Below, piece by piece: positions 4,786-61,650 of a DNA stretch of 64,000 nucleotides. The notes beneath the pieces are model-generated. The model was not told where the DNA came from. It saw only the letters and a list, made by a program, of their open reading frames with translations, and made no database searches. Origin of the DNA: Suillus spraguei (taxonomy: Eukaryota > Basidiomycota > Agaricomycetes > Boletales > Suillaceae). The translations under genes were made by a program, and so were the position numbers. Within the stretch, counting starts at the first letter, position 1, and each line of letters opens with the position of its first letter. Location: contig JABCPU010000240.1 in NCBI GenBank assembly GCA_016800925.1, positions 1 to 64,000 of the forward strand, in the 5' to 3' direction.

Positions 4786-5101
4786 AGGAAACGCGACAAC
4801 AAGTCGCACAAATCATATCAAGAGCCTGAAGAAGGCCCTAACGTCCGCGCGCAAGCCAGGACCACTGTATAGCATAGACAACCAAAAAACGGACCAAAGC
4901 ATATACGAATAGATTAGATGTACAGTAGGTAGTGTCCATCATAGGGCATAGCCCCAACGGACAATAAACAAGGATCAAAAAAAAAAAAAAAAAAAAAACC
5001 ATACTGAGGGTCCTGCCCTGGACTGCTCTTAAACAATCCACGTCACTCAGTCCTGCGGACGTTCGTGCTCCTGATGCCCACCTCTGCCCGCTGTACCATT
5101 G

Positions 5102-5305
5102 CTAACCAGGAAGGTCTGGCTTTGTCCTGAAGTATTCGCAGGCATACTCGAACTGATGAAAAGAAGCGGAAGTCGCCATGGTAGTCAATGAAATAGCACA
5201 AAAAAGAGAACGAACGGTGAACAAATAATCAAACTGTCCGAGCTGAAATAAGATTCTATGTTCGCCAATACGGTCTACGAAAGCCGTGAATTGCGGGTCC
5301 CCCAT
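5102..5305 (-). CDS. Small conserved ORF, unknown (67 codons)
   Basis: The frame begins MGDPQFTAF and ends YFRTKPDLPG. The right-arm copy (61330-61533) keeps the full frame with six substitutions and no indels. It starts about 150 bp past the protease stop on the same strand. No known domain, signal peptide or membrane helix is evident. Conservation between the arms says little, because the arms are near-identical as DNA. It could be a remnant of a longer gene or chance. Confidence 0.25.
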   Translation of the reverse strand: MGDPQFTAFVDRIGEHRILFQLGQFDYLFTVRSLFCAISLTTMATSASFHQFEYACEYFRTKPDLPG

Positions 5306-5455
5306 AGTGCGAATTGACGTCGTTGAGACTCAAGATGCGAATGCTATGCCAACACGTCGATGACTTTGCCTACGCTGCGATTCACCCACCCGTATAAATC
5401 TGTATGCTACTTTGCGTCGGAAAAACCATTCCCTGTATATTTTGGCAATTCCATA

Positions 5456-6946
5456 CTAGTTAGTTGTGGCATCAGTGAACGGGGTTTTGGCAAAACCGAC
5501 TGCGCGATTGTCGCGATCTAAAACGGTGTATTAGCGATGCATAAATGTGTAGCCCAGGATAAAGCTGTATCGCCCTTCACCAGTTTCCGTGCCCAGGCTC
5601 TTAATGATGAGATATATACCACCTTCCTCAGCACCACAAAGCTTGGAGTTGAGAAAAAGAGGCCAGATTTGGGCGTTGGGAGTGAGACTGAGGATTTGCT
5701 GTGCAAAATGGTGAACAAGGGGTGTGAGAGCTGACAGAATTGACATACATTGCCAATATGGAACTTCAACTTCCGTAGGGCTTTATACTGGTCAATGTTA
5801 ATATGGAGATGACCAGTCGGCTGATCGATAGTAGCGCCGGTTGCAGCTTGGTACCTGGCATATGCATCTATCAAACGCTGATTAGACCACTATTACTCGC
5901 TACACTCTAAATGCACACCGGAGGCAAGGTAAATATAGATGCAGCCAGTATCGATGATACCAGCAGATAAGAATAAGATGTCCGTGTCGCCGTAAGTGAT
6001 TAGCATATCGATACCACAGTAGTCCGTGGTGGAAGGGGTGTTGGTGACATCACTGAAACAACATAATTACTAAGAGTCTGGATTGATCTGGGAGCTGAGG
6101 TAGCTTACGTGTATACAATGTCATCAATGCACTTGGTATAGTCAGGTTCACCAAAGGCGAGCTCTCCGACATCGGTGTCTGGATTCTTAGTAAGGGGATG
6201 GAAAAAGATACCAACAATGTTCCGATCAATGACGTCTGCGGTGACCAGCCAGTCAGTGAAGGTTGGATACGTGGCAGCCGCGTTATCTGGGAGGGTGTTG
6301 AGTGTCGAATCTCGAGGCCTGAGGCCAAGGATACCGTCATTTTCCAAGTTCATGGAAGTAGTAGAACCAACAGCGAGTTCGTACTTGGGGATGGTGAGCC
6401 CACGACCGAGAGAGACGGTATCAAGGAAGAAAGTTCCTATAGATAATTATAGGTATTTTCAACTTATGATATTGTTATATGTCATACCAGAGAAGGACCA
6501 AGAAAGAAGCCCCCCGCCACCGTAGGCTGCCCTCACACTCTGTCCGGTGTTGACACCAGTTCCGTCGTATGGAGTGTGGGTGCCAATCCATGTGACCACG
6601 CTACCGGTGTCGAGAAGCAATCTGTCTTCAATAATATATTAGCAGCCGCATGTTTTTTCAGTGTTGAACTAACAGGTCGTAGGGGGGCTGCCAACGTCAA
6701 GTGCTACGATGTATTGACCCGAACGGGTGAATAGTATGGGAATGATTTTAGCACGTCGTTCAAGCGCATTGTAGTCCGTGAAGGCCGCCACACGAGCTTT
6801 ATCGTGTTGCACGAGGTCAATAGTATCATTGGAGAAGTCCAGTTTCCTGGTAAGGGGGATATTAAGGGGGAATTGCGAACTTCAATGGGCGATCCCCTGA
6901 TTGACAAAGGCAGAAGAAGTATCAACAAGGATACAGTGAGGAACAT
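5456..6946 (-). pseudogene. A1 aspartic protease (polyporopepsin-like), left-arm copy, frameshifted
   Basis: This is the inverted copy of 59676-61179 and belongs to the secreted pepsin-like (A1) family. It has a signal peptide (MFLTVSLLILLLPLSIRG) and first catalytic motif DTGS. A second catalytic region reads DTGC where DTGT is usual. The conserved tail runs through NAQIWP to FAKTPF. Five short introns separate the exons. Compared with the right copy, one base is missing near 6862-6871, shifting the frame about 30 codons after the start, so no mature enzyme would be made. Around the second active site this copy is in better condition than the right one: it keeps DYCGIDM and has no stop there. 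The two copies carry different lesions. Confidence 0.8.
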
Positions 6947-7885
6947 GGCTTGTTGGAAGTCATATCATACTCAGTAGCACATTATATACTTCAAGTTATG
7001 TGCCAGTGAACGCGATGACCGTGGCACGTACTATATCGAAACGTCCCCCTCGAAAAAGCAATGATGAGGTGGTTCCGATCCGGGTCACATCATGAGTGCA
7101 AGAATAGAATTCGACCCCTCGATAACATGAGCGATTTGCTTTTGATTCTGGCAGGTGGCAGGAATTTCAATGCAATCATCTGCCTAGTAGTACCAATGGT
7201 TCAAACATTCATTGACTTACCCCCACGTTCATTTCCAGATGCCATCCATTATGAATACATTGCCCAGGCTAGTGTAACAAGCGTTACTGAGCTCTGAGGA
7301 GAGCGGTTGCAATATTCACATTGCGACCGTCCCCTGGGAGTCACGAGCCCTTGGGAGAAGAGTTTTGTCAGACGCAAATGACCCACGTCAATAATGTAGC
7401 GTTGACGATACGTCCTTGTTTCAGAGTGCCGGGTTCACTGCAGAAACGAGAATTTGATCAGACCCGGACAGGGTGCGAAAAGACGACATAGTAACCGGTC
7501 CATAATCGGAGGTGGTAAATCATGCAAAGCCTATCAACGAGTTTGGATTGTGCTACATTTAGTGACGAGCTCGACTCGGAAGGAGCCGAAACGGTGGCTT
7601 AAACCTTAAATCGTCGGTGGATAGCTAGTTTTTGTGTACGCTACCTTATGTCCTATCCTACGCTCGACGTCTGCTCTAAATTTATAACTTCGTATCTCGA
7701 ACTCGTAGCCTCGTTTACAACAGTAGATACATAGCATCGATAGCTGTAAATGCACAGTAACATGAGCGGTCCGCGATAACCCCTCCAATGCAGCACGAGT
7801 CACTCCGTACTTCTAATTTCAACAGCGATCGATGAAAATCAAGTAAGGCAAGTAAGTATACTCTGTTATAGCGATTGTAACGAAA
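6947..7885. other. Intergenic region between protease and membrane gene
   Basis: No gene is supportable here. A plus-strand frame at 7061-7297 and a minus-strand frame at 7606-7803 are open in both arms but show no domain or codon signature. The segment is mirrored at 58737-59675. The protease promoter should lie just above 6946, where the minus strand has a TATATAA box about 36 bp before the ATG, as in the right arm. Confidence 0.5.
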
Positions 7886-9596
7886 CTACAAATGTGGAAT
7901 AAACTCGGACCAAACTACAGTATGGTATGCGCCAGGAGGAAGTGATCGTAAGCTCAGGAACATAAGCACAATTATTGTATACCGTGCAAATAAGTAAAGA
8001 GATAGTGCGCCAGAAGAAACGCAAAAAATAGCAACACCTAGGCCAAGAGCGCAAGCAATTGTGATAACAGACATGACAATCATGACAATCACGATTACAA
8101 TTGCGAAAACAATTGTGATCGCTGTTAGGAAAGCAAGGATAATATGTCGTAGCCAGGATGGGGCTTTCCCCCATGCACGTTCCAACCATATTGGTACTTC
8201 AACTCTATCCAATGCACATCCCAAGTTCATTTCCGATGCAGGTTTCAACCAGCCCGTTAGTAGTTCAAAGACATCTTCCAAGTTAGTGACGCGATCTTGT
8301 GACAGCAAAACCACAGCACCGAGGAAAGGCACTATCAGTGAACATGGCAACCCAATAGAAGCCACACGCCATAAGATCTGCTCCGTGTGTCTTGGAAAAA
8401 AATTCCAGCCCAGACAATGTATCAGTCCAAACACCATTCCACAGGCACTTCCGATGGCTGTCGGGATCTTAGCCAAGCCAGAGTCTGGAAACCTAATGTA
8501 AACGTCTTTGAAGATAGATTGAAGACCTTGTTCTTGTTTCTGAAGCGGCGTTAGACTTGAATGCAGGACAATCAGAATAAGTTCTTCTAGGAATACTGAT
8601 AACATACTAGTACTTGTCGTGTAAGTTTTCATTGTCAGACGGAGAAGCAGTTGCTTCCGAGTTCCAATGAACAATGTAAGGGCGTCCTACGTCCTTGGGC
8701 TTCTTCAACCATAAGAGATAGGAAATGCATGCAACGACGGCTATAGCCAGGGTGTCAATTTCAAGCAGTGTTACTGGGAGGTTCTTGGCGTAGCGGGCGA
8801 AGATCTGGATGACAAACCACAGTAGCTGAAAAATAGCTGCGAATTTTGACAGTAGATCGCCCTTGCTCCTGTCTTCTATGTCTGCTTCCGTGATGTCGGG
8901 CATCTTCACGGAATTTGAACCAACGAACCGCAGGAGCTCCTCGGGTGTGAGAGTGGCCCACGGCTGACCGTTCACATGAAGCACGAATCCTCCCATGTGT
9001 GCGAAGAACCCGTGCCTCACTGTCCATACTGTAAATGCATACGTCTTACATTAGTTTCTTTCTGGTTGAAAAGTCTGAGTATGTGACTGACCGTTGCATA
9101 AACTGTTGCTTGATTTTGATCGTCGGCGGCAACAATTAATTGGGTTTAATCATCGGATGTAACCAAGTAACATAATCCCCAGCTTTCTCCACCATTTGTC
9201 ATGTTGTACACCATGACCTAAGAAATCGTTGAAATCGTTTGCGACTTTACATGCGTTCAAAAGCTCCCATGCGGCCAAGGTGGTTATGGCTTCCGGGGCG
9301 ATCAACGCCACTACCATGAGAGATAGACGACGACCGGTAATGTCCCATTTGTTGTGGTTCATATACGGAATGTTCATATGGACGGCGGTCCACGTGCATG
9401 CAAACAAAGTTAAGCCACAACTCGAAAGAATATCCCACACAGTCCTGGTGTTGCAGACTGGGGAGTTGCTGGCATCAAATGTATTGATACAGGTATCGTT
9501 GAGACCCGAGAGTGAAGCATGAGCAAATGGTACGCCGAAGAGAGCAGCACAAAGTAAGAGGACCATCGAAAAGTTGAGGGCATGGCGTCTGTTCAT
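7886..9596 (-). pseudogene. Multi-pass membrane protein, expanded Agaricomycete family, left-arm copy (gene 1L)
   Basis: It has the three-exon structure of the intact right-arm gene (56948-58736). Exon 1 runs from 9596 and carries a signal peptide and the SSCGLTLFACTWTAVH motif. Exon 2 lies at about 9029-8607 (GFFAHMGGF, LTPEELLRF, SKGD, KPKDVGRP). Exon 3 ends at 7886 with LSLRSLPPGAYHTVVW. A stop at 9150-9152 interrupts exon 1: the right arm has CGA CGA where this copy has CGA TGA, a CpG to TpG change. Exons 1 and 2 are otherwise almost identical to the right arm. Exon 3 is far more diverged and 28 residues shorter, yet still open. The function of the family is not known to me. Confidence 0.8.
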
Positions 9597-10848
9597 TCTG
9601 CTCCCTTTTTATGGGTGCAGCTGCCACCGCATGTATCAATATGTGAATGATAGATAAGCCAGGTTCAAGCGCTGACGTTTACACATACCTCGAGGCTATC
9701 ATACCACCGGCAGAGGGAACCTAAATACTATAGTCACATCCACTAACAATAAAAATCACTGGAAAATGCACTGATAGCTTATACTGAAATTGACATCAGA
9801 CCGCATTCCATCATAGAGTGCTAATTCTCAGTTTCAGTTGATAATCCTCATTCAAGTTGAACTGAGAGAATCATGGCGTTAGTGCAAAACGAATTTCAAA
9901 ATTTCCCGCATTCACAGGGTAGATTCACAAAATTTAAGGCCCTCTAATTTATCACGAATTTGGATAAATTACTCCCAAAGGCTCCGATCAGAAGGATGAG
10001 GTAGAATGAACTTCTGACTGCATGGATGCAGCAGCGCCGAGGCTGTAAAGCTTCTTTAGCGCTAAACGTAGAACGTAAATCAATATCATTATGTAACATC
10101 TAGCAAATTTTTCTCTACCGTCACAGACTGCAGAGTTCGCAGGAAGGCTATGATCCCCATTCAACCAATGCGTACTGTCATGAAATCTACCTCCAAATCC
10201 AAATCCGATGAGGATGATGCGAGAATGTGTGGAGGATATTTTCGACCAGCAACAGGTGAAAACGACATGACTCAGGGTCCTGACTCCAAATCATTCTATA
10301 CGAGTATATCTGTGCTCATGGAATGGAAGGAGTATGATCGAGAGTGTTGTGGAAACAGACTATAACGAGTCAATTGCAAAGACGTTCAACGCCTGGCCTT
10401 CAATAGAACGGGCGGACTTTCAAACCTACCCCGTTCTTAGTGCTTGTTGTAAGTAGAGCTTTCTTACATGTCTCCTCACGTTTATTGATTAACCTTGTGG
10501 TTTTTGGTAGCAAGTCATGAGCTATTTAATAACACACTAATTCCTGCTACCTTAAGGCAGTGGTCTTGTAGCAAGTGGCTAATTTGTAAGGATTTCGTAT
10601 CCTCTACGCCCTGACACTGCTTCAAAAACAAACTTAATCGGCAGGGCATGACATAAAGACTCACTGAGTGGCTGACAACAACCATGGTACTTGGATAAAA
10701 TAATACGCACAAACGCCAGATTTATCTTGTGTCGTTTGTCTTGAGTTATTCGCACCTATGATTTATTACGTGGCACAGTCTTAATTAGATATAAACAAGG
10801 GTGAAACATTTGAAGTTCGAACCCGTGCGTAAAGGGTATGAGGTGCTA
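9597..10848. other. Intergenic region upstream of membrane gene 1L
   Basis: A fragment of a dispersed motif (AAGCCAGGTTCAAGCGCTG) lies at about 9657, and a 71-codon plus-strand frame at 10150-10365 (MIPIQPMRTVMKS) has no recognisable domain. The frame is kept in the right arm (56394-56182, minus) with a one-residue deletion. I cannot support a function for either. The rest shows no gene. Confidence 0.4.
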
Positions 10849-11062
10849 GCGCCGGCCCTTATACATGTACATGCCTCAAGGCCACTATGGCCATTCTAGT
10901 GCCGAAGGATAGTGAATTTTTGGCATCGCTTGAAAAATGGTTGCATGATGTGCCAGCGCCGGCCCTTATACACATGTACATGCCTCAAGGCCACTATTGC
11001 GATTCTAGTGCCGAAGGATGGTGAATTTTTGGCATCGCTGCATATGAAAAATGGTAGCTGAT
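10849..11062. repeat. Tandem repeat, two units of about 107 bp
   Basis: Two adjacent units begin GCGCCGGCCCTTATACA at 10849 and 10956 and run through CATGCCTCAAGGCCACTAT to GGCATCGCT. They differ by a few substitutions and small indels. More diverged single copies of the first half lie at about 9657, 11114, 11693, 30545, 30787 and 31358. The pair is mirrored at about 55478-55691. Confidence 0.8.
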
Positions 11063-11099
11063 CATCCTGCTGTGTTTTGAAGGGTTACCACATGTATTA

Positions 11100-11900
11100 A
11101 TTCCCGCATAATAAGCCAGGTTCGAGTGCTGGCGCTTATGCACAGGCGCACGCCCTGAGGCCATCATAATCGCCGATAGCGCATGAATCTAAATATGTGG
11201 TGTCATGGTACATGTTGAATGCAGTATGCCTGGCTATGAGACGCGAGACGTACTTGTATAGTGTCATCAGTCTAACCCTATGAAATGCAGGGCAGAGTGC
11301 CTATAGTCGGACTATTGATTTGAAGGTTATCGGAAGGTTGAACATCACGGGCGATGAAACACGCAAGCTGAAGCATGGCGATACTGTTCGATAGTCCACC
11401 ACCTTTACTTCGATCTTCCATCTCTGCCTCACATAACAAGCATGACTATAATACATCACAAACAAGGTGCCGAAATTCATGAGGAGTATGAATAATGCGC
11501 AGCTTGCAATTGGCGTAGCCTGAGAGCATGAATTCGCCCATCCACCCATGGTACATTGTACATCCTATGAAGGTGTTGGTTGTATGTTCATCCTGCCTGA
11601 CTGAAGAGCCTGAACGCGTAACTGACCGTTGAACTCTGCCGCAGGCATGGGAGCGCTTAAACTTCCACTTGGGTTATCAATTTATCTATGGTAAGCCAGG
11701 TTCAAGGGTTGGCACTCACATGTGTATGCCTCGATGTTGCTGGAGCGAAGGCACAAGGAATCAAATTACATGCTTCGATCGGAACGAGCTGACTTCCATT
11801 GTACTTGACGTTTCGCGGTCTCCTCGAGTGTGACATATTTGATAACGTTCCAGGTGTACCACACCACCTATCACAATAAGGCTCGCACAGACGGTTCATA
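11100..11900 (-). pseudogene. Decayed second copy of the membrane-protein family
   Basis: The minus-strand frame at 11549-11301 ends with FNLPITFKSIVRL. At DNA level it lines up with the better copy at about 30800-31080 in the spacer, which reads LPITLLQIDTLAISALPCI. That segment matches the LPVTLLEIDTLAIAV stretch of membrane gene 1. Upstream, 11899-11702 keeps another frame (MNRLCEPYCDRWCG) also found in decayed form in the spacer. No continuous coding frame remains. It is mirrored at about 54640-55450. Confidence 0.55.
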
Positions 11901-12053
11901 TGACTCTCGAACTAGCAAAATTGTGAGTGGACGACAGAAACAATAGTAGATAGAGACGTTCACCAGTCATGTGCGTGGCTTCAAGGAATGCGTAACATTT
12001 AATAACTAGCTGCTATGGCAACACTGCAATAGGACGCAGTCATTGTGTCAAGA

Positions 12054-12640
12054 TCAAAGGATACAGGGCATCCTGTGATGCTTGCAGTTGCTAGCACTCA
12101 TCATGTAGCAGACGAAGATAAAAAGTAGAATACGATGGCATTTCATAGTGCAAATACAAAAACCGCCACGAGAAACACGAACAAAGGGTCCTCTATTGCC
12201 ATGGGGGAGATTGTTCAAGTTGTGGGAACGGTTTGCGAAGCTATGGCAAGTCGAATGCTGGATGCCCGGAAGCGGACTTTGAAACCCATTCCCTTCTTGA
12301 ATTTTTGCTGAACATGTCTCCTCGCCATACGGAGTGAACGCCATCATATTCTTGCTGCGCTGCACACACAAAGCTCGGCCATAACGAGTATAGTTTATTG
12401 TTACGCGCTCCTTATATGAGATCAAGGACGGCTCTGGCAGTGGAGCAATACGAGGGATTGTTTGAATATGCGAGTGTGAGATTGTGGGTGTACCCGTTTG
12501 CATGCAGTGATCCAGAGTTATTTTTTGGAGTGAAGTTGAGGATGCATTATTACGCGTGCAGAGGTTTCAAACTTGATTTGGAGGTATGTTGTCATCAATG
12601 GAATGGTATTTGACTTCCTGGCCGGAGAGCACGTGCAGGT
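12054..12640 (-). pseudogene. Cytochrome P450 N-terminal relic
   Basis: The DNA lines up with the P450 fragment at 26348-26821 between its IFNQSLIF and RRQRKLMQKA segments. The clearest protein match is MMAFTPYGEE, against MAAFTPYGDR in the better copy. Frameshifts and missing blocks leave no P450 frame; the 149-codon minus-strand frame here only partly follows it. No heme-binding region is present. It is mirrored at about 53900-54493. Confidence 0.6.
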
Positions 12641-13019
12641 AACATTGGCCTCGTTATTAAAGCCCAGTGAAAATCGACAAGTTAGAAGTAGATATGTATA
12701 GATACAAGGCGAGAAATATCCAAGCAGAAGTTTTTATCGATCCGTTTTGAGGTCGTTCGTCAAATTGTGACTTTTCGAGACACAGAAAGATAGAGACCGA
12801 GACAAGTTTTTAACGTTTAGATAGGATTCTCGATGGCTTTAGATTTCTAGATAGGCATTTACATACGAATTATCACTCAATTTGAATCGAAAAACATATC
12901 GATATACAACTAATATGGACAAATGAGGATATCTATGGGTATCGCTATCATCAGGGGAGGGTGTAGGGTATTGCTGCTCGCTGCGCCTCGCCTGCCAATC
13001 CCGCCAGTCCTGCCATCCA

Positions 13020-13591
13020 CTACTCCACATCGTTGCCGGTAGTACTGACTCCAGCTGATTTGAGCTGTAAAACAGGACTGTTAGTGTAGTATGAGATAGA
13101 ATATATAGCATGCAGCACTCACCTGAGTAGCTGCTTTGCACTTGTACACCTATAACAGTAGACAGTATTAGATAGATATCAGTATAAGAAAAAAGACGCA
13201 CCTCTTTGTCTGTTTTAGACAGCCCATTCCAGTAACAAGCAAAGACACTTGCTGGTTCCTTTTGATGGCCATTTGATTGCCAGCCGAGAGCACACAAGTT
13301 CCTGTGCGATATAAATCATAGAATCAGTTTTGATGGGTATAATAGTAAAAGAACACCTTACCGTGCCGTAATCTTTGCGCTCACCCGCATTGGCTTGGTA
13401 CTTGGCTGACGCTTTTTGATGGTATCGATCTTCGTATCGGTTACGATCGTGGTCTTGGTTTGATTAACGAGTTCGACCTTGACAGTCAACGAAGCTACAT
13501 GGTCACTCGATGGTACGGAGGCAGGTGTTGTGTTCTCGTTGATATTGGAATTGATTTCAGATGTAGAGGTATCGGTGAGAGGAACAATACA
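13020..13591 (-). CDS. Small four-exon gene, HMG-box-like (left-arm copy)
   Basis: This is the inverted copy of 52948-53519; the exon structure is described there. The protein is predicted to contain KKRQPSTKPMRVSAK followed by a WNGLSKTDKEVYKCKAA segment that resembles the second half of an HMG box. All splice sites used in the right copy are also present here. The N-terminal start is not resolved: an in-frame stop lies just upstream and there is no ATG in the first exon. It may be a partial gene. Confidence 0.35.
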
Positions 13592-15824: not shown

Positions 15825-16170
15825 TTAATCGAGGATTCTGAATCCTGAAAATAAATTAGATTGTCGCAGCTGCAGGCCAAGTTGAACGCCCGAAACATAG
15901 TACATTGATGTCGTCATACAAGAACACGAATCAGCATGTATAATCAGCCCGGAAAGCAAGCACACAAAAGGTCGATTACTCAACCTTTGTAACACTTTCA
16001 ATGGCTTTCTGCTGAACGCGTCTTTTGAGGTCCACCCGCATTGGGTATCCGAATATCGTCGTACAGCCAACATAAGCAGCCTGAATACAAAATTAAGGCG
16101 CGGGGTTCGGAAAGTTGTGAGATAGGCACACCGTCACTATAGCGCCCTTTACATATTGCCTGCGAAGTGA

Positions 16171-16808: not shown

Positions 16809-16839
16809 GTTGCCTTAGAAGACTTCTTGGATAATGAAT

Positions 16840-18069: not shown

Positions 18070-18158
18070 TGTTTGGTTGGGATGGTATGATCTACTGAGA
18101 TGCTCAAATGATCTCTTTGAGGTGGGTCGAACCCTGGTGACAATAGGAAGATGACTCG

Positions 18159-18166
18159 CTTTTATA
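18159..18166 (-). promoter_or_regulatory. TATA box of left peptide gene
   Basis: TATAAAAG on the minus strand lies about 90 bp before the ATG at 18069. It is identical in the right arm at 48367-48374. Confidence 0.55.
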
Positions 18167-19806: not shown

Positions 19807-19808
19807 CC

Positions 19809-48366: not shown

Positions 48367-48374
48367 TATAAAAG
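48367..48374 (+). promoter_or_regulatory. TATA box of right peptide gene
   Basis: TATAAAAG lies 90 bp before the ATG at 48464 and is identical in the left arm. Confidence 0.55.
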
Positions 48375-48463
48375 CGAGTCATCTTCCTATTGTCACCAGG
48401 GTTCGACCCACCTCAAAGAGATCATTTGAGCATCTCAGTAGATCATACCATCCCAACCAAACA

Positions 48464-50368: not shown

Positions 50369-52947
50369 TCACTTCGCAGGCAATATGTAAAGGACGCTAT
50401 AGTGACGGTGTGCCTATCTCACAACTTTCCGAACCCCGCGCCTTAATTTTGTATTCAGGCTGCTTATGTTGGCTGTACGACGATATTCGGATACCCAATG
50501 CGGGTGGACCTCAAAAGACGCGTTCAGCAGAAAGCCATTGAAAGTGTTACAAAGGTTGAGTAATCGACCTTCTGTGTGCTTGCTTTCCGGGCTGATTATA
50601 CATGCTGATTCGTGTTCTTGTATGACGACATCAATGTACTATGTTTCGGGCGTTCAACTTGGCCTGCAGCTGCGACAATCTAATTTATTTTCAGGATTCA
50701 GAATCCTCGATTAACTCCAGTATATCATACTAGAACGATCTTGTTTTGTGGGAAGAGTTATCTTATCTTTACATTCGTCTGTCAAGGGACTACTAACGAC
50801 ATCTTGTATACGTAGTTCATTCGTTCCGGCGCCAACGATCAGGAACGTAGACCGTTACCATCGATCCCGTGAGTCGTACGCATATATTGACTTGGTCTGG
50901 AGGACATGAGACTTGCAGTTATGGAACGTGCATATGACGAGAGATCAATATTCTGTCCAATGGCGGTATATCTCTCGGGCACCATATCTCACTGCAGTAG
51001 TCGGTGGATCTAGTCATGGATGCAGGTGCATACACTAAGTGCTTGTACCACATACTTATTATGAGCGATAAAGGATGCACTGAAGGAGGGTTTGTCAGTT
51101 GGGAAGAGAGCAATAGCAGCAGGGATTGACATCTACAATATTATATGCTCGTGTGAGTTCCAGAAGAGCCAGACAAGTAATGGGATTCGAAAAATATATA
51201 AAGTTACTGCTAGAAAAACGAAAATGAGGAGACGTACAATGGTTAGCTTCGATAATTGACATTCTCCATCCAGTAGTGGCGGTAAGAATATGGGCAGATA
51301 GTGCACAGCACGTGTAGGTCGCACGGGCTACACGAGGTCGAGAAGCGGTCTATGGATGGGTATTTTTAAGCGAGAGGTCTGTATAGAATAATAAGTTTTC
51401 TAATACGATCAAGAAACAGATGAAGAACTCAATAAATAGTCGAGGAAACAAAACCTCAAGCAATAATATCAAGAACGCAAATGGTTTGCCATGAGATTCA
51501 AGTTTTGGAGAGAACCAAAGACAATCTCATCGTGAATACAAGACACCGCATACCAATCGTACCGCACATCAAGAACAGACATTCAGCTCAATTTTGAACG
51601 AGAACTAGTTCCAAATATGAACTAAATGCCGGTTTTTTAAATGGTGATGAAGAGTGCGAGACGGGTACCAGTCTTACGTTCGGGATGGATAGATAAATGA
51701 GAAACGTACTCGCAGATCTAGAACGTCATCCTCATCGGCGTTGTTATGCCACTATGTGGGACATGAAAAAAAGTGTACTTGCTCTACTATCCTCGGAGCG
51801 CTGAATACAAAAAATGATCACTAGTGATGCCAATGAAGGACGAAAGACATACGGTAGATCGCTTTATTCTCTACACTAGCAAACATAACCACACGAATTT
51901 TGCACGACAGTGAGGTTCCAAGCGAGGTCGAGTGAGGAACTTGCATTTTTCTAGATGGGCAACAGGGCGTTCAGGCTCAAAATACCGGAGAGCATGGTAT
52001 TAGATGGAATTCAGTAAGACAGAAAAAGAAAGGCGAATTCGATGGTTTTTAAATTTCCGTGCTATTCAGCGGACAGGACTTGTGAGAGCGGAACTCAAGT
52101 TTGAATGCTACCAGCGGGAATGAAGATAAAACCAGGTACCAACTTACAGACGAGACTTGTCGGGTCGTTCGACATGTTGCTTGTGATCTGAGGAATGGCA
52201 GTACAAACCCATTCCACAATGGTTGGTTGGGTTCGTGTGTCAACGAGAACGCCCACGTTGAATAAGGCTCATCCTAACGGTTAATAAGACAAGAGATAAA
52301 TTGAATGAGATAGATTGGATGGAAAGAGAAGAGATATTTTTATCGACGGAGAAAGGGCGAGGTCAGTAGTATATTGACGCACATGTACTTTGGTCATCGA
52401 ACTAATCGGGATCTTGCCCAATTCTATTTTTGGTCTGCCATGGCGGGCATGCCTGTGAGTCACAACCCACAAACTGAATAGGACATCTGGATGAAAAGTT
52501 AGCTGAACTCAACTGAGAGAATTATTACAGTTCATTCAGCATAAGTATCCGTTAATAATGGTGATTATACCAGTGATGTCGACGGACTACCAGTGAAGAA
52601 GGGTTTAGAATGAGCAAATTCAAATGTGAATATTGTGGTGACGATATTTAAGGCTTCAATCCCAGTGAAAATCAACAATTTAGAGGTAGATAGGTAGCAA
52701 TAGACGTCTAAGTACCGAACGAAATAGATAGAAATCTAAATAATCTGAGATGAAAAAAATGACAAATTACGCAAAATGCAAATATGAGATTCAAGATGCA
52801 AATATGAAGACGCAAATGCCAGAATGCTTGAAACTTTGCAAATTGTCGCGAGTGCACATCTGCAACATTGGTTGCAATCCAAGTTCAAATTTGTTCAAAT
52901 CACTCCCATTCCATGCATCCTAACAAAGCCGGAATATATGAACATGA
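50369..52947. repeat. Repeat module and intergenic region (right arm)
   Basis: It mirrors about 13592-16170. The part 50820-52500 corresponds to the module also seen at 32020-33394. Short frames (52049-52243, 52281-52472, 50466-50714) are shared with the left arm but have no recognisable coding features. Confidence 0.55.
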
Positions 52948-53519
52948 TGTATTGTTCCTCTCACCGATACCTCTACATCTGAAATCAATTCCAATATCAA
53001 CGAGAACACAACACCTGCCTCCGTACCATCGAGTGACCATGTAGCTTCGTTGACTGTCAAGGTCGAACTCGTTAATCAAACCAAGACCACGATCGTAACC
53101 GATACGAAGATCGATACCATCAAAAAGCGTCAGCCAAGTACCAAGCCAATGCGGGTGAGCGCAAAGATTACGGCACGGTAAGGTGTTCTTTTACTATTAT
53201 ACCCATCAAAACTGATTCTATGATTTATATCGCACAGGAACTTGTGTGCTCTCGGCTGGCAATCAAATGGCCATCAAAAGGAACCAGCAAGTGTCTTTGC
53301 TTGTTACTGGAATGGGCTGTCTAAAACAGACAAAGAGGTGCGTCTTTTTTCTTATACTGATATCTATCTAATACTGTCTACTGTTATAGGTGTACAAGTG
53401 CAAAGCAGCTACTCAGGTGAGTGCTGCATGCTATATATTCTATCTCATACTACACTAACAGTCCTGTTTTACAGCTCAAATCAGCTGGAGTCAGTACTAC
53501 CGGCAACGATGTGGAGTAG
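52948..53519 (+). CDS. Small four-exon gene, HMG-box-like
   Basis: Exons 52948-53177, 53238-53337, 53390-53416 and 53475-53519 join in frame across 60-, 52- and 58-bp introns, all with GT and AG borders (GTAAGG, GTGCGT, GTGAGT). The protein has an acidic/Ser/Thr N-terminal part with VELVNQTKTTIVTDTK, then KKRQPSTKPMRVSAK. It continues NLCALGWQSNGHQKEPASVF and WNGLSKTDKEVYKCKAA, and stops after NDVE. The W...LS..KE.Y...A pattern is like helices 2-3 of an HMG box, a DNA-binding fold. No ATG lies in the first exon, so the start is missing or in an unseen exon. Confidence 0.4.
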
Positions 53520-53899
53520 TGGATGGCGGGACTGGCGGGATTGGCAGGCGAGGCGCAGCGAGCAGCAATACCCTACACCCTCCCCTGATGATAGCGATAC
53601 CCATAGATATCCTCATTTGTCCATATTAGTTGTATATCGATATGTTTTTCGATTCAAATTGAGTGATAATTCGTATGTAAATGCCTATCTAGAAATCTAA
53701 AGCCATCGAGAATCCTATCTAAACGTTAAAAACTTGTCTCGGTCTCTATCTTTCTGTGTCTCGAAAAGTCACAATTTGACGAACGACCTCAAAACGGATC
53801 GATAAAAACTTCTGCTTGGATATTTCTCGCCTTGTATCTATACATATCTACTTCTAACTTGTCGATTTTCACTGGGCTTCAATAACGAGGCCAATGTTA

Positions 53900-54493
53900 C
53901 CTGCACGTGCTCTCCGGCCAGGAAGTCAAATACCATTCCATTGATAACAACATACCTCCAAATCAAGTTTGAAGCCTCTGCACGCGTAATAATGCATCCT
54001 CAACTTCACTCCGAAAAATAACTCTAGATCACTGCATGCAAACGGGTACACCCACAATCTCACACTCGCATATTCAAACAATCCCTCGTATTGCTCCACT
54101 GCCAGAGCCGTCCTTGATCTCATATAATGAGCACATAACAATAAACTACACTCGTTATGGCCGAGCTTTGTGTGTGCAGCGCAGCAAGAATATGATGGCG
54201 TTCACTCCGTATGGCGAGGAGACATGTTCAGCAAAAATTCAAGAAGGGAATGGGTTTCAAAGTCCGCTTCCGGGCGTCCATTTTGCATTCGACTTGCCAT
54301 AGCGAAGTTCGCAAACCGTTCCCATAACTTGAACAATCTCCCCCATGGCAATAGAGGATCCTTTGTTCGTGTTTTTCGTGGCGGTTTTTGTATTTGCACT
54401 ATGAAATGCCATCGTATTCTACTTTTTATCTTCGTCTGCTACATGATGAGTGCTAGCAACTGCAAGCATCACAGGATGCTCTGTATCCTTTGA
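53900..54493 (+). pseudogene. Cytochrome P450 N-terminal relic (right arm)
   Basis: It is the inverted copy of 12054-12640. MMAFTPYGEE near 54195 is the clearest P450 trace. Small indels relative to the left arm (near 54280) change the frames, as expected without selection. Confidence 0.6.
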
Positions 54494-55477
54494 TCTTGAC
54501 ACAATGACTGCGTCCTATTGCAGTGTTGCAATAGCAGCTAGTTATTAAATGTTACGCATTCCTTGAAGTCATGCACATGACTGGTGAACGTCTCTATCTA
54601 CTATTGTTCCTGTCGTTCACTCACGATTCTGCTATTTCGAGAGTCATATGAACCGTCTGTGCGAGCCTTATTGTGATAGGTGGTGTGGTGCACCTGGAAC
54701 ATTATCAAATATGTCACACTCGAGGAGACCGCGAAACGTCAAGTACAATGGAAGTCAGCTCGTTCCGATCGAAGCATGTAATTTGATTCCTTGTGCCTTC
54801 GCTCCAGCAACATCGAGGCATACACATGTGAGTGCCAACCCTTGAACCTGGCTTACCATAGATAAATTGATGATCCAAGTGGAAGTTTAAGCGCTCCCAT
54901 GCCTGCGGCAGAGTTCAACGGTCAGTTACGCGTTCAGGCTCTTCAGTCAGGCAGGATGAACATACAACCAACACCTTCATAGGATGTACAATGTACCATG
55001 GGTGGATGGGCGAATTCATGCTCTCAGGCTACGTCAATTGCAAGCTGCGCATTATTCATACTCCTCATGAATTTCGGCACCTTGTTTGTGATGTATTATA
55101 GTCATGCTTGTTATGTGAGGCAGAGATAGAAGATCGATGGAAGATCGAAGTAAAGGTGGTGGACTATCGAACAGTATCGCCATGCTTCAGCTTGCGTGTT
55201 TCATTGCCCGTGATGTTCAACCTTCCGATAACCTTCAAATCAATAGTCCGACTATAGGCACTCTGCCCTGCATTTCATAGGGCTAGACTGATGACACTAT
55301 ACAAGTACGTCTCGCGTCTCATAGCCAGGCATACTGCATTCAACATGTACCATGACACCACATATTTAGATTCATGCGCTATCGGCGATTATGATGGCCT
55401 CAGGGCGTGCGCCTGTGCATAAGCGCCAGCACTCGAACCTGGCTTATTATGCGGGAATTAATACATGTGGTAACCCT
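54494..55477 (+). pseudogene. Decayed membrane-family copy (right arm)
   Basis: It mirrors 11063-12050. A short duplication (GGAAGATCGA region near 55130) not present on the left breaks the frame further. It ends with the dispersed AAGCCAGG-type repeat near 55436. Confidence 0.5.
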
Positions 55478-55691
55478 TCAAAACACAGCAGGATGATCAG
55501 CCACCATTTTTCATATGCAGCGATGCCAAAAATTCACCATCCTTCGGCACTAGAATCGCAATAGTGGCCTTGAGGCATGTACATGTGTATAAGGGCCGGC
55601 GCTGGCACATCATGCAACCATTTTTCAAGCGATGCCAAAAATTCACTATCCTTCGGCACTAGAATGGCTATAGTGGCCTTGAGGCATGTAC
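55478..55691. repeat. Tandem repeat, two units of about 107 bp (right arm)
   Basis: It is the inverted copy of 10849-11062, with the same two-unit structure and a few base differences. Confidence 0.8.
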
Positions 55692-56947
55692 ATGTATAAG
55701 GGCCGGCGCTAGCACCTCATACCCTTTACGCACGGGTTCGAACTTCAAATGTTCCACCCTTGTTTATATCTAATTAAGACTGTGCCACGTAATAAATCAT
55801 AGGTGCGAATAACTCAAGACAAACGACACAAGATAAATCTGGCGTTTGTGCGTATTATTTTATCCAAGTACCATGGTTGTTGTCAGCCACTCAGTGAGTC
55901 TTTATGTCATGCCCTGCCGATTAAGTTTGTTTTTGAAGCAGTGTCAGGGCGTAGAGGATACGAAATCCTTACAAATTAGCCACTTGCTACAAGACCACTG
56001 CCTTAAGGTAGCAGGAATTAAATAGCTAATGACTTGCTACCAAAAACCACAAGGTTAATCAATAAACGTGAGGAGACATGTAAGAAAGCTCTACTTACAA
56101 CAAGCGCTAAGAACGGGGTAGGTTTGAAAGTCCGCCCGTTCTATTGAAGGCCAGGCGTTGAACGTCTTTGCAATTGACTCGTTATAGTCTGTTTCCACAA
56201 CACTCTCGATCATACTCCTTCCATTCCATGAGCACAGATATACTCGTATAGAATGATTTGGAGTCAGGACCCTGAGTTATGTCGTTTTCACCTGCTGGTC
56301 GAAAATATCCTCCACACATTCTCGCATCATCCTCATCGGATTTTGATTTGGAGGTAGATTTCATGACAGTACGCATTGGTTGAATGGGGATCATAGCCTT
56401 CCTGCGAACTCTGCAGTCTGTGACGGTAGAGAAAAAATTGCTAGATGTTACATAATGATATTGATTTACGTTCTACGTTTAGCGCTAAAGAAGCTTTACA
56501 GCCTCAGTGCTGCTGCATCCATGCAGTCAGAAGTTCATTCTACCTGATCCTTCTGATCGGAGCCTTTGGGAGTAATTTTTCCAAATTCGTGATAAATTAG
56601 AGGGCCTTGAATTTTGTGAATCTACCCTGTGAATGCGGGAAATTTTGAAATTCGTTTTGCACTAACGCCATGATTCTCTCAGTTCAACTTGAATGAGGAT
56701 TATCAACTGAAACTCAGAATTAGCACTCTATGATGGAATGCGGTCTGACGTCAATTTCAGTATAAGCTATCAGTGCATTTTCCAGTGATTTTTATTGTTA
56801 GTGGATGTGACTATAGTATTTAGGTTCCCTCTGCCGGTGGTATGATAGCCTCGAGGTATGTGTAAACGTCAGCGCTTGAACCTGGCTTATCTATCATTCA
56901 CAGATTGATACACGCGGTGGCAGCTGCACCCATAAAGAGGGAGCAGA
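55692..56947. other. Intergenic region upstream of membrane gene 1R
   Basis: It mirrors 9597-10848. The 70-codon minus-strand frame at 56394-56182 (MIPIQPMRTVMKS) has no recognisable function. No gene is otherwise supported. Confidence 0.4.
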
Positions 56948-58736
56948 ATGAACAGACGCCATGCCCTCAACTTTTCGATGGTCCTCTTACTTTGTGCTGC
57001 TCTCTTCGGCGTACCATTTGCTCATGCTTCACTCTCGGGTCTCAACGATACCTGTATCCATACATTTGATGCCAGCAACTCCCCAGTCTGCAACACCAGG
57101 ACTGTGTGGGATATTCTTTCGAGTTGTGGCTTAACTTTGTTTGCATGCACGTGGACCGCCGTCCATATGAACATTCCGTATATGGACCACAACAAATGGG
57201 ACATTACCGGTCGTCGTCTAACTCTCATGGTAGTGGCGTTGATCGCCCCGGAAGCCATAACCACCTTGGCCGCATGGGAGCTTTTGAACGCATGTAAAGT
57301 CGCAAACGATTTCAACGATTTCTTAGGTATAAAACATGACAAATGGTGGAGAAAGCTGGGGATTATGTTACTTGGTTACATCCGACGATTAAACCCAATT
57401 AATTGTTGCCGCCGACGATCAAAATCAAGCAACAGTTTATGCAATGGTCAGTCACATACTCAGACTTTTCAACCAGGAAGAAACTAATGTAAGACGTATG
57501 CATTTACAGTATGGACAGTGAGGCACGGGTTCTTCGCATACATGGGAGGATTCGTGCTTCATGTGAACGGTCAGCCGTGGGCCACTCTCACACCCGAGGA
57601 GCTCCTGCGGTTCGTTGGTTCAAATTCCGTGAAGATGCCCGACATCACGGAAGCAGACATAGAAGACAGGAGCAAGGGCGATCTACTGTCAAAATTCGCA
57701 GCTATTTTTCAGCTACTGTGGTTTGTCATCCAGATCTTCGCCCGCTACGCCAAGAACCTCCCAGTAACACTGCTTGAAATTGACACCCTGGCTATAGCTG
57801 TCGTTGCATGCATTTCCTATCTCTTATGGTTGAAGAAGCCCAAGGACGTAGGACGCCCTTACATTGTTCATTGGAACTCGGAAGCAACTGCTTCTCCGTC
57901 TGACAATGAAAACTTACATGACAAGTACTAGTATGTTATCAGTATTCCTAGAAGAACTTATTCTGATTGTCCTGCATTCAAGTCTAACGCCGCTTCAGAA
58001 ACAAGGTCTTCAATCTATCTTCAAAACGCTTTACATTAGGTTTCCAGACTCTAGCTTGGCTAAGATCCCGACAGCCATCGGAAGTGCCAGTGGAATGGTG
58101 TTTGGAGTGATACATTGTCTGGGCTGGAATTTTTTTCCAGGACACACGGAACAGATCTTTTGGCGTGTGGCTTCTATTGGGGTGCCATGTTCACTGATAG
58201 TGCCTTTCCTTGGTGCTGCGGTTTTTCTGTCACACGATCACGTCACTGACTTGCAACATGCCTTTGAACCACTAATGGGCTGGTTGAAACGTGCATCGGA
58301 ATGGGGACGCGAAGTTGAAATAGGAGAGGGCTTGGACCGTGCATTGGATAGAGTTGAAGTACCAACATGCTTGGAACGTGCATGGGAGAAAGTCCCATCC
58401 TGGCTACAACGTATTATCCTTGCTTTCCTATTAGCGATCGCAATTGTTGTCGCAATTGTTTTCGTAATTATTGCAATTGCACTCATAATTGTCATGACTG
58501 TTGTCGCGATTGTCATGACTGTTGTCGCAATTGCTTACTCTCTTGGCCTAACTGTTGCTTTTTTTGGCGCTTTTGTTGGCATTCTTGTTGGCACGTTTGT
58601 TAGTGTTACCTGCTGCATATTTCTTTACTTATTTGCACGGTTTACAATAATTGTGCTTATGTTCCTGAGCTTACGATCACTTCCTCCTGGCGCATACCAT
58701 ACTGTAGTTTGGTCCGAGTTTATTCCACATTTGTAG
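56948..58736 (+). CDS. Multi-pass membrane protein, expanded Agaricomycete family, intact (gene 1R, 557 aa)
   Basis: Exons 56948-57446, 57510-57930 and 57983-58736 total 1674 bases in exact phase. Introns are 63 bp (GTCAGT...TTACAG) and 52 bp (GTATGT...TTCAAG). Exon 1: a signal peptide or anchor (SMVLLLCAALFGVPFAHA), then DTCIHTFDASNSPVC, SSCGLTLFACTWTAVH, and a helix. Exon 2: GFFAYMGGF, LTPEELLRFV, IEDRSKGDLLSK, two helices, KPKDVGRPYIVHW. Exon 3: HCLGWNFFP and HTEQIFWRVAS, an unusually long Ile/Val/Ala-rich hydrophobic segment (about 58430-58640), and SLRSLPPGAYHTVVWSEF. The family occurs in many copies in Agaricomycetes; its function is not known to me. This is the best-preserved gene in the window. 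Confidence 0.85.
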
Positions 58737-59675
58737 TTTCATTACAATCGCTATAACAGAGTATACTTACTTGCATTACTTGATTTTCATCAATCGCTGT
58801 TGAAATTAGAAGTACGGAGTAACTCGTGCTGCATTGGAGGGGTTATCGCGGACCGCTCATGTTACTGTGCATTTACAGCTATCGATGCTATGTATCTACT
58901 GTTGTAAACGAGGCTACGAGTTCGAGACACGAAGTAATAAATTTAGAGCAGACGTCGAGCGTAGGATAGGACATAAGGTAGCGTACACAAAAACTAGCTA
59001 TCCACCGACGATTTAAGGTTTAAGCCACCGTTTCGGCTCCTTCCGAGTCGAGCTCGTCACTAAATGTAGCACAATCCAAACTCGTTGATAGGCTTTGCAT
59101 GATTTACCACCTCCGATTATGGACCGGTTACTATGTCGTCTTTTCGCACCCTGTCCGGGTCTGATCAAATTCTCGTTTCCGCAGTGAACCCGGCACTCTG
59201 AAACAAGGACGTATCGTCAACGCTACATTATTGACGTGGGTCATTTGCGTCTGACAAAACTCTTCTCCCAAGGGCTCGTGACTCCCAGGGGACGGTCGCA
59301 ATGTGAATATTGCAACCGCTCTCCTCAGAGCTCAGTAACGCTTGTTACACTAGCCTGGGCAATGTATTCATAATGGATGGCATCTGGAAATGAACGTGGG
59401 GGTAAGTCAATGAATGTTTGAACCATTGGTACTACTAGGCAGATGATTGCATTGAAATTCCTGCTACCTGCCAGAATCAAAAGCAAATCGCTCATGTTAT
59501 CGAGGGGTCGAATTCTATTCTTGCACTCATGATGTGACCCGGATCGGAACCACCTCATCATTGCTTTTTCGAGGGGGACGTTTCGATATAGTACGTGCCA
59601 CGGTCATCGCGTTCACTGGCACATAACTTGAAGTATATAATGTGCTACTGAGTATGATATGACTTCCAACAAGCC
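58737..59675. other. Intergenic region between membrane gene and protease
   Basis: It mirrors 6947-7885. A TATATAA at 59634-59640 lies about 36 bp before the protease ATG and is its likely core promoter. No gene is supportable. Confidence 0.5.
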
Positions 59676-61179
59676 ATGTTCCTCACTGTATCCTTGTTGA
59701 TACTTCTGCCTTTGTCAATCAGGGGATCGCCCGTTGAAGTTCGCAATTCTCCCGTTAATATCCCCCTTACCAGGAAACTGGACTTCTCCGATGATACTAT
59801 TGACCTCGTGCAACACGATAAAACTCGTGTGGCGGCCTTCACGGACTACAATGCGCTTGAACGACGTGCTAAAATCATTCCCATACTATTCACCCGTTCG
59901 GGTCAATACATCGTAGCACTTGACGTTGGCAGCCCCCCTACGACCTGTGAGTTCAACACCGAAAAAACATGCGGTTGCTAATATATTATTGAAGACAGAT
60001 TGCTTCTCGACACCGGTAGCGCGGTCACATGGATTGGCGCCCACACTCCATACGACGGAACTGGTGTCAACACCGGACAGAGTGTGAGGGCAGCCTACGG
60101 TGGTGGGGGGCTTCTTTCTTGGTCCTTCTCTGGTATGACATATAACAATATCATAAGTTGAAAATACCTATAATTATATATAGGAACTTTCTTCCTTGAT
60201 ACCGTCTCTCTCGGTCGTGGGCTCACCATCCCCAAGTACAAACTCGCTGTTGGTTCTACTACTTCCACGAACTTGGGAGATGACGGTATTCTTGGCCTCG
60301 GGCCTCGAGATTTGACACTCAACACCCTCCCAGATAACGCGGCTGCCACGTATCCAACCTTCACTGACTGGCTGGTTACCGCAGACGTCATTGATCGGAA
60401 CATTGTTGGTATCTTTTTCCATCCCCTTACTAAGAATCCAGACACCGATGTCGGAGAGCTCGCCTTTGGTGAACCTGACTATACCAAGTGCATTGATGAC
60501 ATTGTATACACGTAAGCTACCTCAGCTCCCAGATCAATCCAGACTCTTAGTAATTATGTTGTTTCAGTGATGTCACCACGGACTTCTGAAATATCGATAT
60601 GCTAATCACTTACGGCGACACGGACATCTTATTCTTCACTTACGGCGACACGGACATCTTATTCTTATCTGCTGGTATCATCGATACTGGCTGCATCTAT
60701 ATTTACCTTGCCTCCGGTGTGTATTTAGAGTGTAGCGAGTAATAGTGGTCTAATCAGCGTTTGATAGATGCATATGCCAGGTACCAAGCCGCAACCGGCG
60801 CTACTATCGATCAGCCGACTGGTCATCTCCGTATTAACATTGACCAGTACAATGCCCTACGGAAGTTGAAGTTCCATATTGGCAATGTATGTCAATTCTG
60901 TCAGCTCTCACACCCCTTGTTCACCATTTTGCACAGCAAATCCTCAGTCTCACTCCCAACGCCCAAATCTGGCCTCGTTTTCTCAACTCCAAGCTTCGTG
61001 GTGCTGAGGAAGGTGGTATATATCTCATCATTAAGAGCCTGGGCACGGAAACTGGCGAAGGGCGGTACAGCTTTATCCTGGGCTACACATTTATGCATCG
61101 CTACTACACCGTTTTAGATCGCGACAATCGCGCAGTCGGTTTTGCCAAAACCCCGTTCACTGATGCCACAACTAACTAG
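59676..61179 (+). pseudogene. A1 aspartic protease (polyporopepsin-like), right-arm copy, one nonsense codon
   Basis: Exons 59676-59946, 59995-60132, 60184-60511, 60568-60716, 60768-60886 and 60937-61179 follow the family reading frame. A signal peptide and propeptide precede GQYIVALDVGSPPTT. The first active site is LLLDTGSAVTW. GILGLGPRD and the DVGELAFGEPD region follow. The second active site reads IIDTGCIYIYLASD, with Cys after DTG where Thr is usual. The C-terminus has NAQIWPRFLNS and a normal end. Two lesions flank the second active site: a 15-base loss leaving TGA at 60587-60589, and an in-frame 30-bp tandem duplication (YGDTDILFFT) at about 60625-60665. It would have been a secreted acid protease. 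Confidence 0.8.
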
Positions 61180-61329
61180 TATGGAATTGCCAAAATATAC
61201 AGGGAATAATTTTTCCTACGCAAAGTAGCATACGGATTTATACGAGTGGTTGAATCGCAGCGTAGGCAAAGCCATCGACGTTTTGGCATGACATTCGCAT
61301 CTTGAGTCTCGACGACGTCAATTCGCACT

Positions 61330-61533
61330 ATGGGGGACCCGCAATTCACGGCTTTCATAGATCGTATTGGCGAACATAGAATCTTATTTCAGCTCGGACA
61401 GTTTGATTTTTTGTTCACCGTTCGTTCTCTTTTTCGTGCTCTTTCATTGACTACCATGGCGACTTCCGCTTCTCTTCATCAGTTCGAGTATGCCTGCGAA
61501 TACTTCAGGAGAAAGCCAGACCTTCCTGGTTAA
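61330..61533 (+). CDS. Small conserved ORF, unknown (67 codons, right copy)
   Basis: It is the inverted copy of 5102-5305 and starts MGDPQFTAFI. It lies 150 bp past the protease on the same strand. No domain is visible. Confidence 0.25.
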   Translation: MGDPQFTAFIDRIGEHRILFQLGQFDFLFTVRSLFRALSLTTMATSASLHQFEYACEYFRRKPDLPG

Positions 61534-61650
61534 CAATGGTACAGCGGGCGGAGGTGGGCATCATGAGCACGAACGTCTGCAGGACTAAGTGACGTGGATT
61601 GTTTAAGAGCAGTTCATCACCCAGGGCAGGACCCTTGGTATGGTTGTGGT

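What the first reader, a model, noticed from the sequence alone, without database searches (positions are those of the whole stretch)
4999..61643. Giant imperfect palindrome with arms of about 23 and 16 kb around a 17-kb spacer
Gene order, hairpins, tandem repeats and even intergenic sequence at 4999-28345 recur inverted at 45769-61643, mostly near-identical. Structures of this size are unstable, so it is either recent, protected by low recombination, or maintained by gene conversion between arms. It could also be a haplotype-joining assembly artefact: two allelic haplotypes head to head would look alike.
Basis: seen in the sequence. Interest (0 to 1): 0.9.

Follow-up and report, generated by a model that had tools for sequence, protein, structure and literature searches.

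The report
Palindrome from a LINE-flipped tandem repeat
In a mushroom genome a stretch of a direct tandem repeat has been turned around between two opposite copies of the same jumping element, which makes two same-way repeats look like one giant palindrome; whether the flip is in the fungus or only in the assembly needs long reads to settle.

Summary
The palindrome is in the sequence as described: 4997-28346 recurs inverted at 45769-61645, 98.2% identical over 15,706 ungapped columns, with a 17,422-bp spacer. Contig C415 (104,829 bp; host Suillus spraguei) carries a direct tandem array in which 45769-67811 is flipped between two opposite, about 99%-identical, 6.3-kb Tad-like LINEs (LINE-a 39448-45768; LINE-c 67812-74412, outside the window). 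Neither LINE has a target-site duplication of its own. LINE-a's 5' flank matches LINE-c's 3' flank (the only one of 625 cross pairings). The LINEs look like recombinants with a switch at LINE position 1919-2053 (few sites). Contig C336 of the same genome runs uninterrupted through the un-flipped order. The array has at least four long copies of the arm unit, so head-to-head alleles are unlikely. The arms are the closest pair in 7 of 15 one-kb windows, with one roughly 2-kb conversion-like tract. Ectopic recombination between LINEs is preferred. A mis-join by the assembler inside the LINEs remains possible: the second pair of flanks does not match and its partner junctions were not found.

The parts
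4997..28346 (+). Left arm (array unit X-left, holding LINE-b)
45769..61645 (-). Right arm (array unit X', inverted)
28347..45768 (.). Spacer: paralogous units U2 and U3 (first part) in the same orientation as the left arm, then LINE-a
39448..45768 (+). LINE-a, full-length LINE at the flip junction; no TSD of its own; 5' flank AAAGATCATTGG, 3' flank TGGAATCGGCG
41366..41500 (.). Inferred exchange point inside LINE-a (LINE positions 1919-2053), between the last a/b-shared and the first b/c-shared site; rests on few sites
18362..24958 (-). LINE-b, ordinary insertion in the left arm with TSD AGCATCTCGGA; empty site in the right arm, C336, C428 and C415:74.7 kb
3927..4995 (+). 3' part of another LINE copy, at the outer end of the left arm (empty site in the right arm); bounded at 3926 by other sequence, probably the Ty3/Gypsy-type element that fills the contig start
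37878..39447 (+). U3 first part, cut by LINE-a; continues un-flipped at C415:67811 reading leftwards, and uninterrupted in C336
61646..64000 (-). Far part of the flipped U3 unit (continues to C415:67811, where LINE-c, 67812-74412, begins outside the window)
12665..13878 (.). About 1.2-kb element with ~36-bp inverted ends in both arms, absent from C336 and C428 (9-base overlap at the empty site); lies in the conversion-like tract

Best explanation
The locus is a direct tandem array of roughly 10-20 kb units in Suillus spraguei (Boletales). A Tad-like LINE inserted into unit U3 with a normal target-site duplication; other LINE copies inserted near by in the opposite orientation. Homologous (ectopic) recombination between LINE copies in opposite orientation turned the stretch between them around, so a unit that had been a direct repeat of the left arm now faces it and reads as a giant palindrome. 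A second LINE-LINE event (most simply a deletion between two same-way LINEs in neighbouring X units) is needed to explain the other junction. Shown: one exchanged flank pair, collinear empty sites, un-flipped second contig. Suggested: mosaic LINEs. Inferred: that it happened in the fungus, the order of events, and the deletion.
For: LINE-a and LINE-c lie in opposite orientation and are 98.6-99.2% identical. Of 18 LINE copies with a complete or nearly complete 5' end and both ends read (LINE-a, -b, -c and 15 outside C415), 15 show a target-site duplication on inspection; the three without are LINE-a, LINE-c and C580. LINE-a 5' flank (..AAAGATCATTG G|) matches LINE-c 3' flank (|AAAGATCATTG..); in an all-against-all scoring of 650 flank pairs this was the only one of 625 cross pairs scoring 7 or more, the next being 6. 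Joined there, the flanks are collinear with intact sites in X-left, U2 and C428 and with C336, where U3 (= C415 37673-39446, 96.0%) runs straight into the reverse of C415 67813-66913 (97.2%), sharing 13 bases. C336:120501-140500 goes on in un-flipped order through the X unit into C415:74413-77122 at 99.96%. C428 also carries the units as direct repeats. LINE-a and LINE-c look like complementary recombinants: 6 of 6 a/b-shared sites lie at LINE 197-1919 and 6 of 6 b/c-shared sites at 2053-4422 (exact p 0.002; label switches 4 of 15, reached by 45 of 100,000 permutations, tested after the pattern was seen). Of 22 LINE copies outside C415 listed, 1 lies within 2 kb of a contig end.
Against: The second exchanged pair fails: LINE-a 3' flank (TGGAATCGGCG) and LINE-c 5' flank (GTCTGTTACAG) do not match, so one clean inversion is not enough. 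Their partner junctions were not found (0 matches each, exact patterns only). Identity to C336 jumps from 93-98% to 99.96% exactly at LINE-c, which a mis-join would also give. The strict scoring recovered 10 of 25 own pairs (9 with complete 5' ends, LINE-b among them, and C301); the count of 15 rests on reading the flanks. Of five copies I took for 5'-truncated, only C301 showed a duplication; for C329, C367 and C47 a LINE 5' end lies further along the same contig in the same orientation, so they are probably interrupted copies and that comparison was not valid; C847 stays unexplained. The mosaic test uses 10 LINE copies and 16 sites; by distance LINE-c at 1986-3400 is closer to L003 (9.9 per thousand) than to LINE-b (12.0), and sites at the 3' end are shared by a and c, so other exchange is mixed in. 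The 22 copies are the best-scoring ones (24 of 463 candidates scored), which leaves out copies cut short by contig ends.
Confidence: 0.58

Rival explanations
1. Assembly artefact: the contig takes wrong paths through near-identical LINE copies, joining U3 to the inner end of X' and the reverse of 67811 to the X'' haplotype. In the fungus the array is entirely direct and there is no palindrome.
For: Both anomalous joins lie exactly at 6.3-kb repeats; no TSD at either; partner junctions not found; identity to C336 jumps at LINE-c; genome of 86.2 Mb in 1,256 contigs with near-identical contig pairs, as in an unphased dikaryon (the dikaryon is inferred); contig C807 begins exactly at a LINE end; the start of C415 looks like an uncorrected fold-back.
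Against: 14 of 15 LINE copies outside C415 with complete or nearly complete 5' ends carry matching TSDs, so the assembler crossed those correctly; 21 of 22 listed copies lie at least 2 kb inside contigs, and of 33 exact LINE 5' ends none lies within 2 kb of the first base of its contig (distance to the far ends not known for all). The one search set is biased towards whole copies. C415 right of LINE-c is a separate haplotype from C336 (about 3.95-kb insertion in C415 absent from C336).
Confidence: 0.35
2. Two allelic haplotypes of one locus joined head to head: the arms are alleles.
For: Arms differ by about 1.8% and by one LINE insertion, and over all they are a little closer to each other than to C336 or C428; both would suit alleles.
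Against: More than two copies: X-left, X', C336, about 9 kb on C428, and a truncated copy at C415:74413-76215. The arms are the closest pair in only 7 of 15 windows, while the C336 / C415-right pair is 99.96% identical over 2,711 bp. LINE-a lacks a TSD and its 5' flank matches LINE-c, which head-to-head alleles do not predict.
Confidence: 0.03
3. A palindrome kept alike by arm-to-arm gene conversion, as on sex chromosomes (comparison recalled).
For: A 1,755-bp run without a difference (13012-14766; 0 of 20,000 random placements of the 329 events reach it, 12 of 20,000 with a third of the events), including most of an element that C336 and C428 lack; in 13879-14766 the arms have 0 differences against 11 and 15 to C336 and C428. 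Arms are the closest pair in 7 of 15 windows and over all.
Against: In 8 of 15 windows another copy is closer to one arm than the arms are to each other. The tract may predate the flip, since direct repeats convert too.
Confidence: 0.04

Closest known systems
Transposon-mediated inversions by ectopic recombination: Galileo in Drosophila buzzatii, inversion 2z3 (PMC2775673; nine passages seen, one from the abstract)
   Same: Two copies of one element in opposite orientation at the ends of the turned stretch, exchanged target-site duplications (here one of two pairs), recombinant-looking elements, un-flipped sequence available for comparison.
   Different: The element here is a LINE, not a DNA transposon; the stretch between the LINEs is about 22 kb; it lies in a tandem array so that turning it makes a palindrome; the second pair of flanks does not match; not confirmed by reads.
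Large inverted-repeat palindromes with arm-to-arm conversion (mammalian sex chromosomes; recalled, no call)
   Same: Long, near-identical inverted arms around a spacer; one conversion-like tract.
   Different: In 8 of 15 windows an arm is closer to a copy elsewhere, and the arrangement is explained by LINEs at the ends.
Unphased dikaryon assemblies with duplicated haplotypes (Laccaria trichodermophora, PMC10995626; twelve passages seen)
   Same: Contig pairs nearly identical and differing by insertions.
   Different: Explains the extra contigs, not the inverted order; that this strain is a dikaryon is inferred.

Membership tests
Inversion by ectopic recombination between transposable elements (criteria as in PMC2775673) | Two homologous copies in opposite orientation at the two ends | tested here: met
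   LINE-a (+) 39448-45768 and LINE-c (-) C415:67812-74412, 98.6-99.2% identical
Inversion by ectopic recombination between transposable elements (criteria as in PMC2775673) | Target-site duplications exchanged between the two copies | tested here: inconclusive
   One exchanged pair matches (11 bases in the flanks, 13 in C336); the other pair does not
Inversion by ectopic recombination between transposable elements (criteria as in PMC2775673) | Both elements are recombinants of the two parents | tested here: inconclusive
   Complementary mosaic with a switch at LINE 1919-2053 (16 sites, 10 copies); distances support LINE-a's first 2 kb as b-like but not LINE-c's middle as closest to b; parents not available
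Inversion by ectopic recombination between transposable elements (criteria as in PMC2775673) | Un-flipped chromosome with single-copy target site | tested here: met
   C336:117501-120500 crosses the site without a LINE; C336:120501-140500 goes on un-flipped
Inversion by ectopic recombination between transposable elements (criteria as in PMC2775673) | Junctions present in single DNA molecules | not testable with these tools
   No reads available
Conversion-maintained palindrome | Arms more alike to each other than to any other copy along their length | tested here: not met
   Met in 7 of 15 one-kb windows, not in 8 (two end windows had no comparison); over all the arms are the closest pair (1.86% against 2.15-3.01%)
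Head-to-head allelic haplotypes | Exactly two copies, diverged as alleles are | tested here: not met
   At least four long copies (one of them about 9 kb) and one truncated copy; an allele-like pair is 99.96% over 2,711 bp
Tad-like LINE (name recalled) | Endonuclease, reverse transcriptase and RNase H domains, poly-A 3' end, TSDs | tested here: met
   Pfam PF14529/PF03372, PF00078, PF00075; poly-A and TSDs. Named relatives among the 120 listed of 257 hits are Agaricomycetes (class recalled)
Tad-like LINE (name recalled) | Falls in the Tad clade of a reverse-transcriptase tree | not tested
   No tree was made

The most novel reading that the evidence does not exclude
The array flips reversibly: opposite LINEs, and now the long inverted arms themselves, let the same stretch turn back and forth, so the two nuclei of one dikaryon carry opposite orders of a Suillus-rich membrane-protein-like gene array, with arm-to-arm conversion spreading sequence (such as the 1.2-kb element) once the units face each other.
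Probability: 0.12. Interest if true: 0.6.

Novelty: new member of a known kind. Interest (0 to 1): 0.35.

Why it matters
It replaces an apparently exotic giant palindrome by a mechanism that can be read base by base: an exchanged target-site duplication and recombinant-looking LINEs inside a tandem gene array of an ectomycorrhizal mushroom. If the join is real it is a clear case of LINE-driven inversion differing between contigs of one fungus. If it is not, the same signature (two full LINEs without own duplications whose flanks match crosswise) is a cheap test for mis-joined contigs in dikaryon assemblies.

Tried and rejected
Alleles head to head: rejected on copy number and on the exchanged flank. 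A single clean inversion: rejected, because the second pair of flanks does not match. Finding the missing partner junctions: four pattern searches for LINE-a 3' / LINE-c 5' partners and one for the partner of the outer-left LINE gave 0 matches; exact letters only, so a diverged junction could be missed. Testing whether LINEs sit at contig ends: one search lists 33 exact LINE 5' ends, none within 2 kb of a contig's first base, but contig lengths were not known for all. Finding the assembly's sequencing method in print: searches 'Suillus spraguei' + 'PacBio' (1 paper, PMC10387565, two passages seen) and 'Suillus spraguei' + 'genome' (8 papers, listing only) did not give it; 10.1111/nph.17160 (recalled) is not held, and PMC11019867 holds none of the terms asked. 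Searches were seen as listings; from their results passages were seen of PMC4168063, PMC10995626 and PMC2775673. No tRNA was found in the window. I made no search for reports of palindromes in Suillus and claim nothing about what is in print.

The odds of the conversion reading went from 0.02 to 0.04 and of the best explanation from 0.60 to 0.58.
Full report
Observation. The inverted repeat is real as sequence: 4997-28346 against 61645-45769. Without the LINE that only the left arm holds, the arms align at 98.19% over 15,706 columns. The window is the first 64 kb of contig C415 (104,829 bp) of an 86.2-Mb genome in 1,256 contigs. Two database proteins found with an arm-encoded frame lie on contigs of 104,829 and 401,651 bp and are named Suillus spraguei; these are the lengths of C415 and C336, so I take both to be contigs of that species.

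The arms are units of a direct array. U2 (28856-35361) and U3 (37878-39444) in the spacer are mostly 71-82% paralogues of the left arm in the same orientation, with short stretches up to 92%. Outside the window, C415 bears another truncated copy at 74413-76215. C336:120501-140500 and C428:27433-56843 carry near-identical copies, all in direct order. C428 joins the first part of U3 to the later part of X, a sign of unequal exchange. The arms are therefore two of at least four long copies (the C428 one about 9 kb).

Both visible ends of the palindrome are LINE ends. A 6.3-kb LINE with endonuclease, reverse transcriptase and RNase H, 98-100% identical in 34 matching pieces (24 of 463 candidates scored) and with 33 exact 5' ends in the genome, lies at 39448-45768 (LINE-a, +), 18362-24958 (LINE-b, -), C415:67812-74412 (LINE-c, -) and, as a 3' part, at 3927-4995. 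The inner end of the right arm begins at LINE-a's poly-A; the left arm has the empty site there. The outer end of the left arm begins at the poly-A of the 3' part; the right arm has the empty site there.

Target-site duplications tell the history. LINE-b and 14 of 15 copies outside C415 with complete or nearly complete 5' ends show matching flanks (read; C580 does not). LINE-a and LINE-c do not, but LINE-a's 5' flank matches LINE-c's 3' flank. In an all-against-all scoring of 26 by 25 flanks this was the only cross pair of 625 at 7 or more, the next best being 6. That strict scoring recovered 10 of 25 own pairs; others were lost, as far as I can see, to the way poly-A was trimmed or to mismatches. 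Five further copies looked 5'-truncated and only one of them showed a duplication; for three of these a LINE 5' end lies further along the same contig, so they are probably interrupted and were compared wrongly. Bringing the LINE-a 5' and LINE-c 3' flanks together restores a unit collinear with X-left, U2 and C428. In C336 the same sequence is uninterrupted: C415 37673-39446 and the reverse of C415 67813-66913 follow each other with a 13-base overlap. So 45769-67811 is turned round relative to the state in which the LINE inserted.

The LINEs look recombinant. With seven other full copies as background, 16 sites distinguish LINE-a, -b and -c. Sites shared by a and b all lie at LINE 197-1919, sites shared by b and c at 2053-4422, sites shared by a and c at 4178-6029 (the pattern had been seen). 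The first 2 kb of LINE-a is closest to LINE-b (5.5 per thousand; next 10.6), the rest closest to other copies (3.8-4.2 per thousand). This fits an exchange near LINE 1919-2053 between a b-like parent and another. Against it: at 1986-3400 LINE-c is by distance closer to L003 (9.9) than to b (12.0), and the a/c sites at the 3' end point to further exchange.

What does not fit. LINE-a's 3' flank and LINE-c's 5' flank should match too after one clean inversion, and do not. A second event is needed; the simplest is a deletion between two same-way LINEs in adjacent X units, which would also explain why C415 holds X' complete to 28346 and X'' only from 18009 on. The lost partner junctions were not found in the assembly (exact patterns). 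C415 just right of LINE-c matches C336 at 99.96% but left of it only at 93-98%. A mis-join would give both. C415 right of LINE-c is nevertheless its own haplotype: it carries a roughly 3.95-kb insertion that C336 lacks, and beyond it the two are listed as 99% identical. Of 22 listed LINE copies outside C415, 21 lie more than 2 kb from a contig end, but that list favours whole copies. On balance this favours, without proving, a real rearrangement.

Gene conversion. The arms share a 1,755-bp run without a difference (13012-14766), preceded by 351 more bases after one difference; the longest run in any other pair of copies is 575. Random placement of the 329 differences never reached it in 20,000 trials, and 12 of 20,000 did with a third of them. 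It includes most of a 1.2-kb element absent from C336 and C428. Over all, the arms are the least diverged pair that involves an arm (1.86%; XL-C428 2.15, XR-C428 2.54, XR-C336 2.65, XL-C336 3.01, where XL is the left and XR the right arm), but by 1-kb windows they are closest in 7 of 15 and not in 8. The picture is a mosaic: the copies have exchanged sequence, the arms perhaps more with each other, but conversion between the arms does not explain the inverted order.

Verdict. The sequence relation (a direct array with one stretch turned between opposite LINEs) I hold at about 0.93. That it happened in the fungus by ectopic recombination, 0.58; that the assembler made it inside the LINEs, 0.35. 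The kind of event is known from Drosophila Galileo inversions (PMC2775673, passages).

Noticed in passing
window 1-249: The first 249 bases of the contig are their own reverse complement at 88%, next to frames of a Ty3/Gypsy-type element; looks like an uncorrected fold-back read at the contig end.
   Followed up: partly
window 4512-4785, 18504-18777, 34333-34606; C415:70299-70572: A 274-bp element with inverted ends sits in three LINE copies of C415 and in the spacer; many of the listed genome copies are 99-100% identical over about 280 bases, so it moved very recently.
   Followed up: no
window 33393-34251: About 860-bp element with ~39-bp inverted ends, 12 listed genome copies at 90-98%.
   Followed up: no
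window 7889-8686 and paralogous frames in the units: The array encodes a family of predicted proteins (relatives of 430-450 aa) whose named relatives are Suillus except one Russula; no Pfam match in the frames and relatives tested. Membrane nature is only my reading of the hydrophobic stretches.
   Followed up: partly
C415:83115-87065 (L041:115-4065): About 3.95-kb mobile element, 95-99% in 12 other listed contigs, present in C415 and absent at the same site in C336: a haplotype difference.
   Followed up: no
window 26351-27043: Fragment with a cytochrome P450 start (PF00067) inside the left arm; the arm alignment has gaps of several hundred bases around there.
   Followed up: no
C580:129754-136059: Another nearly complete LINE copy without matching flanks; may mark a further rearrangement.
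   Followed up: no
C329, C367, C47: LINE copies with a LINE 5' end about 1.8, 6.4 and 9.7 kb away from the main piece on the same contig and strand: probably interrupted by later insertions.
   Followed up: no
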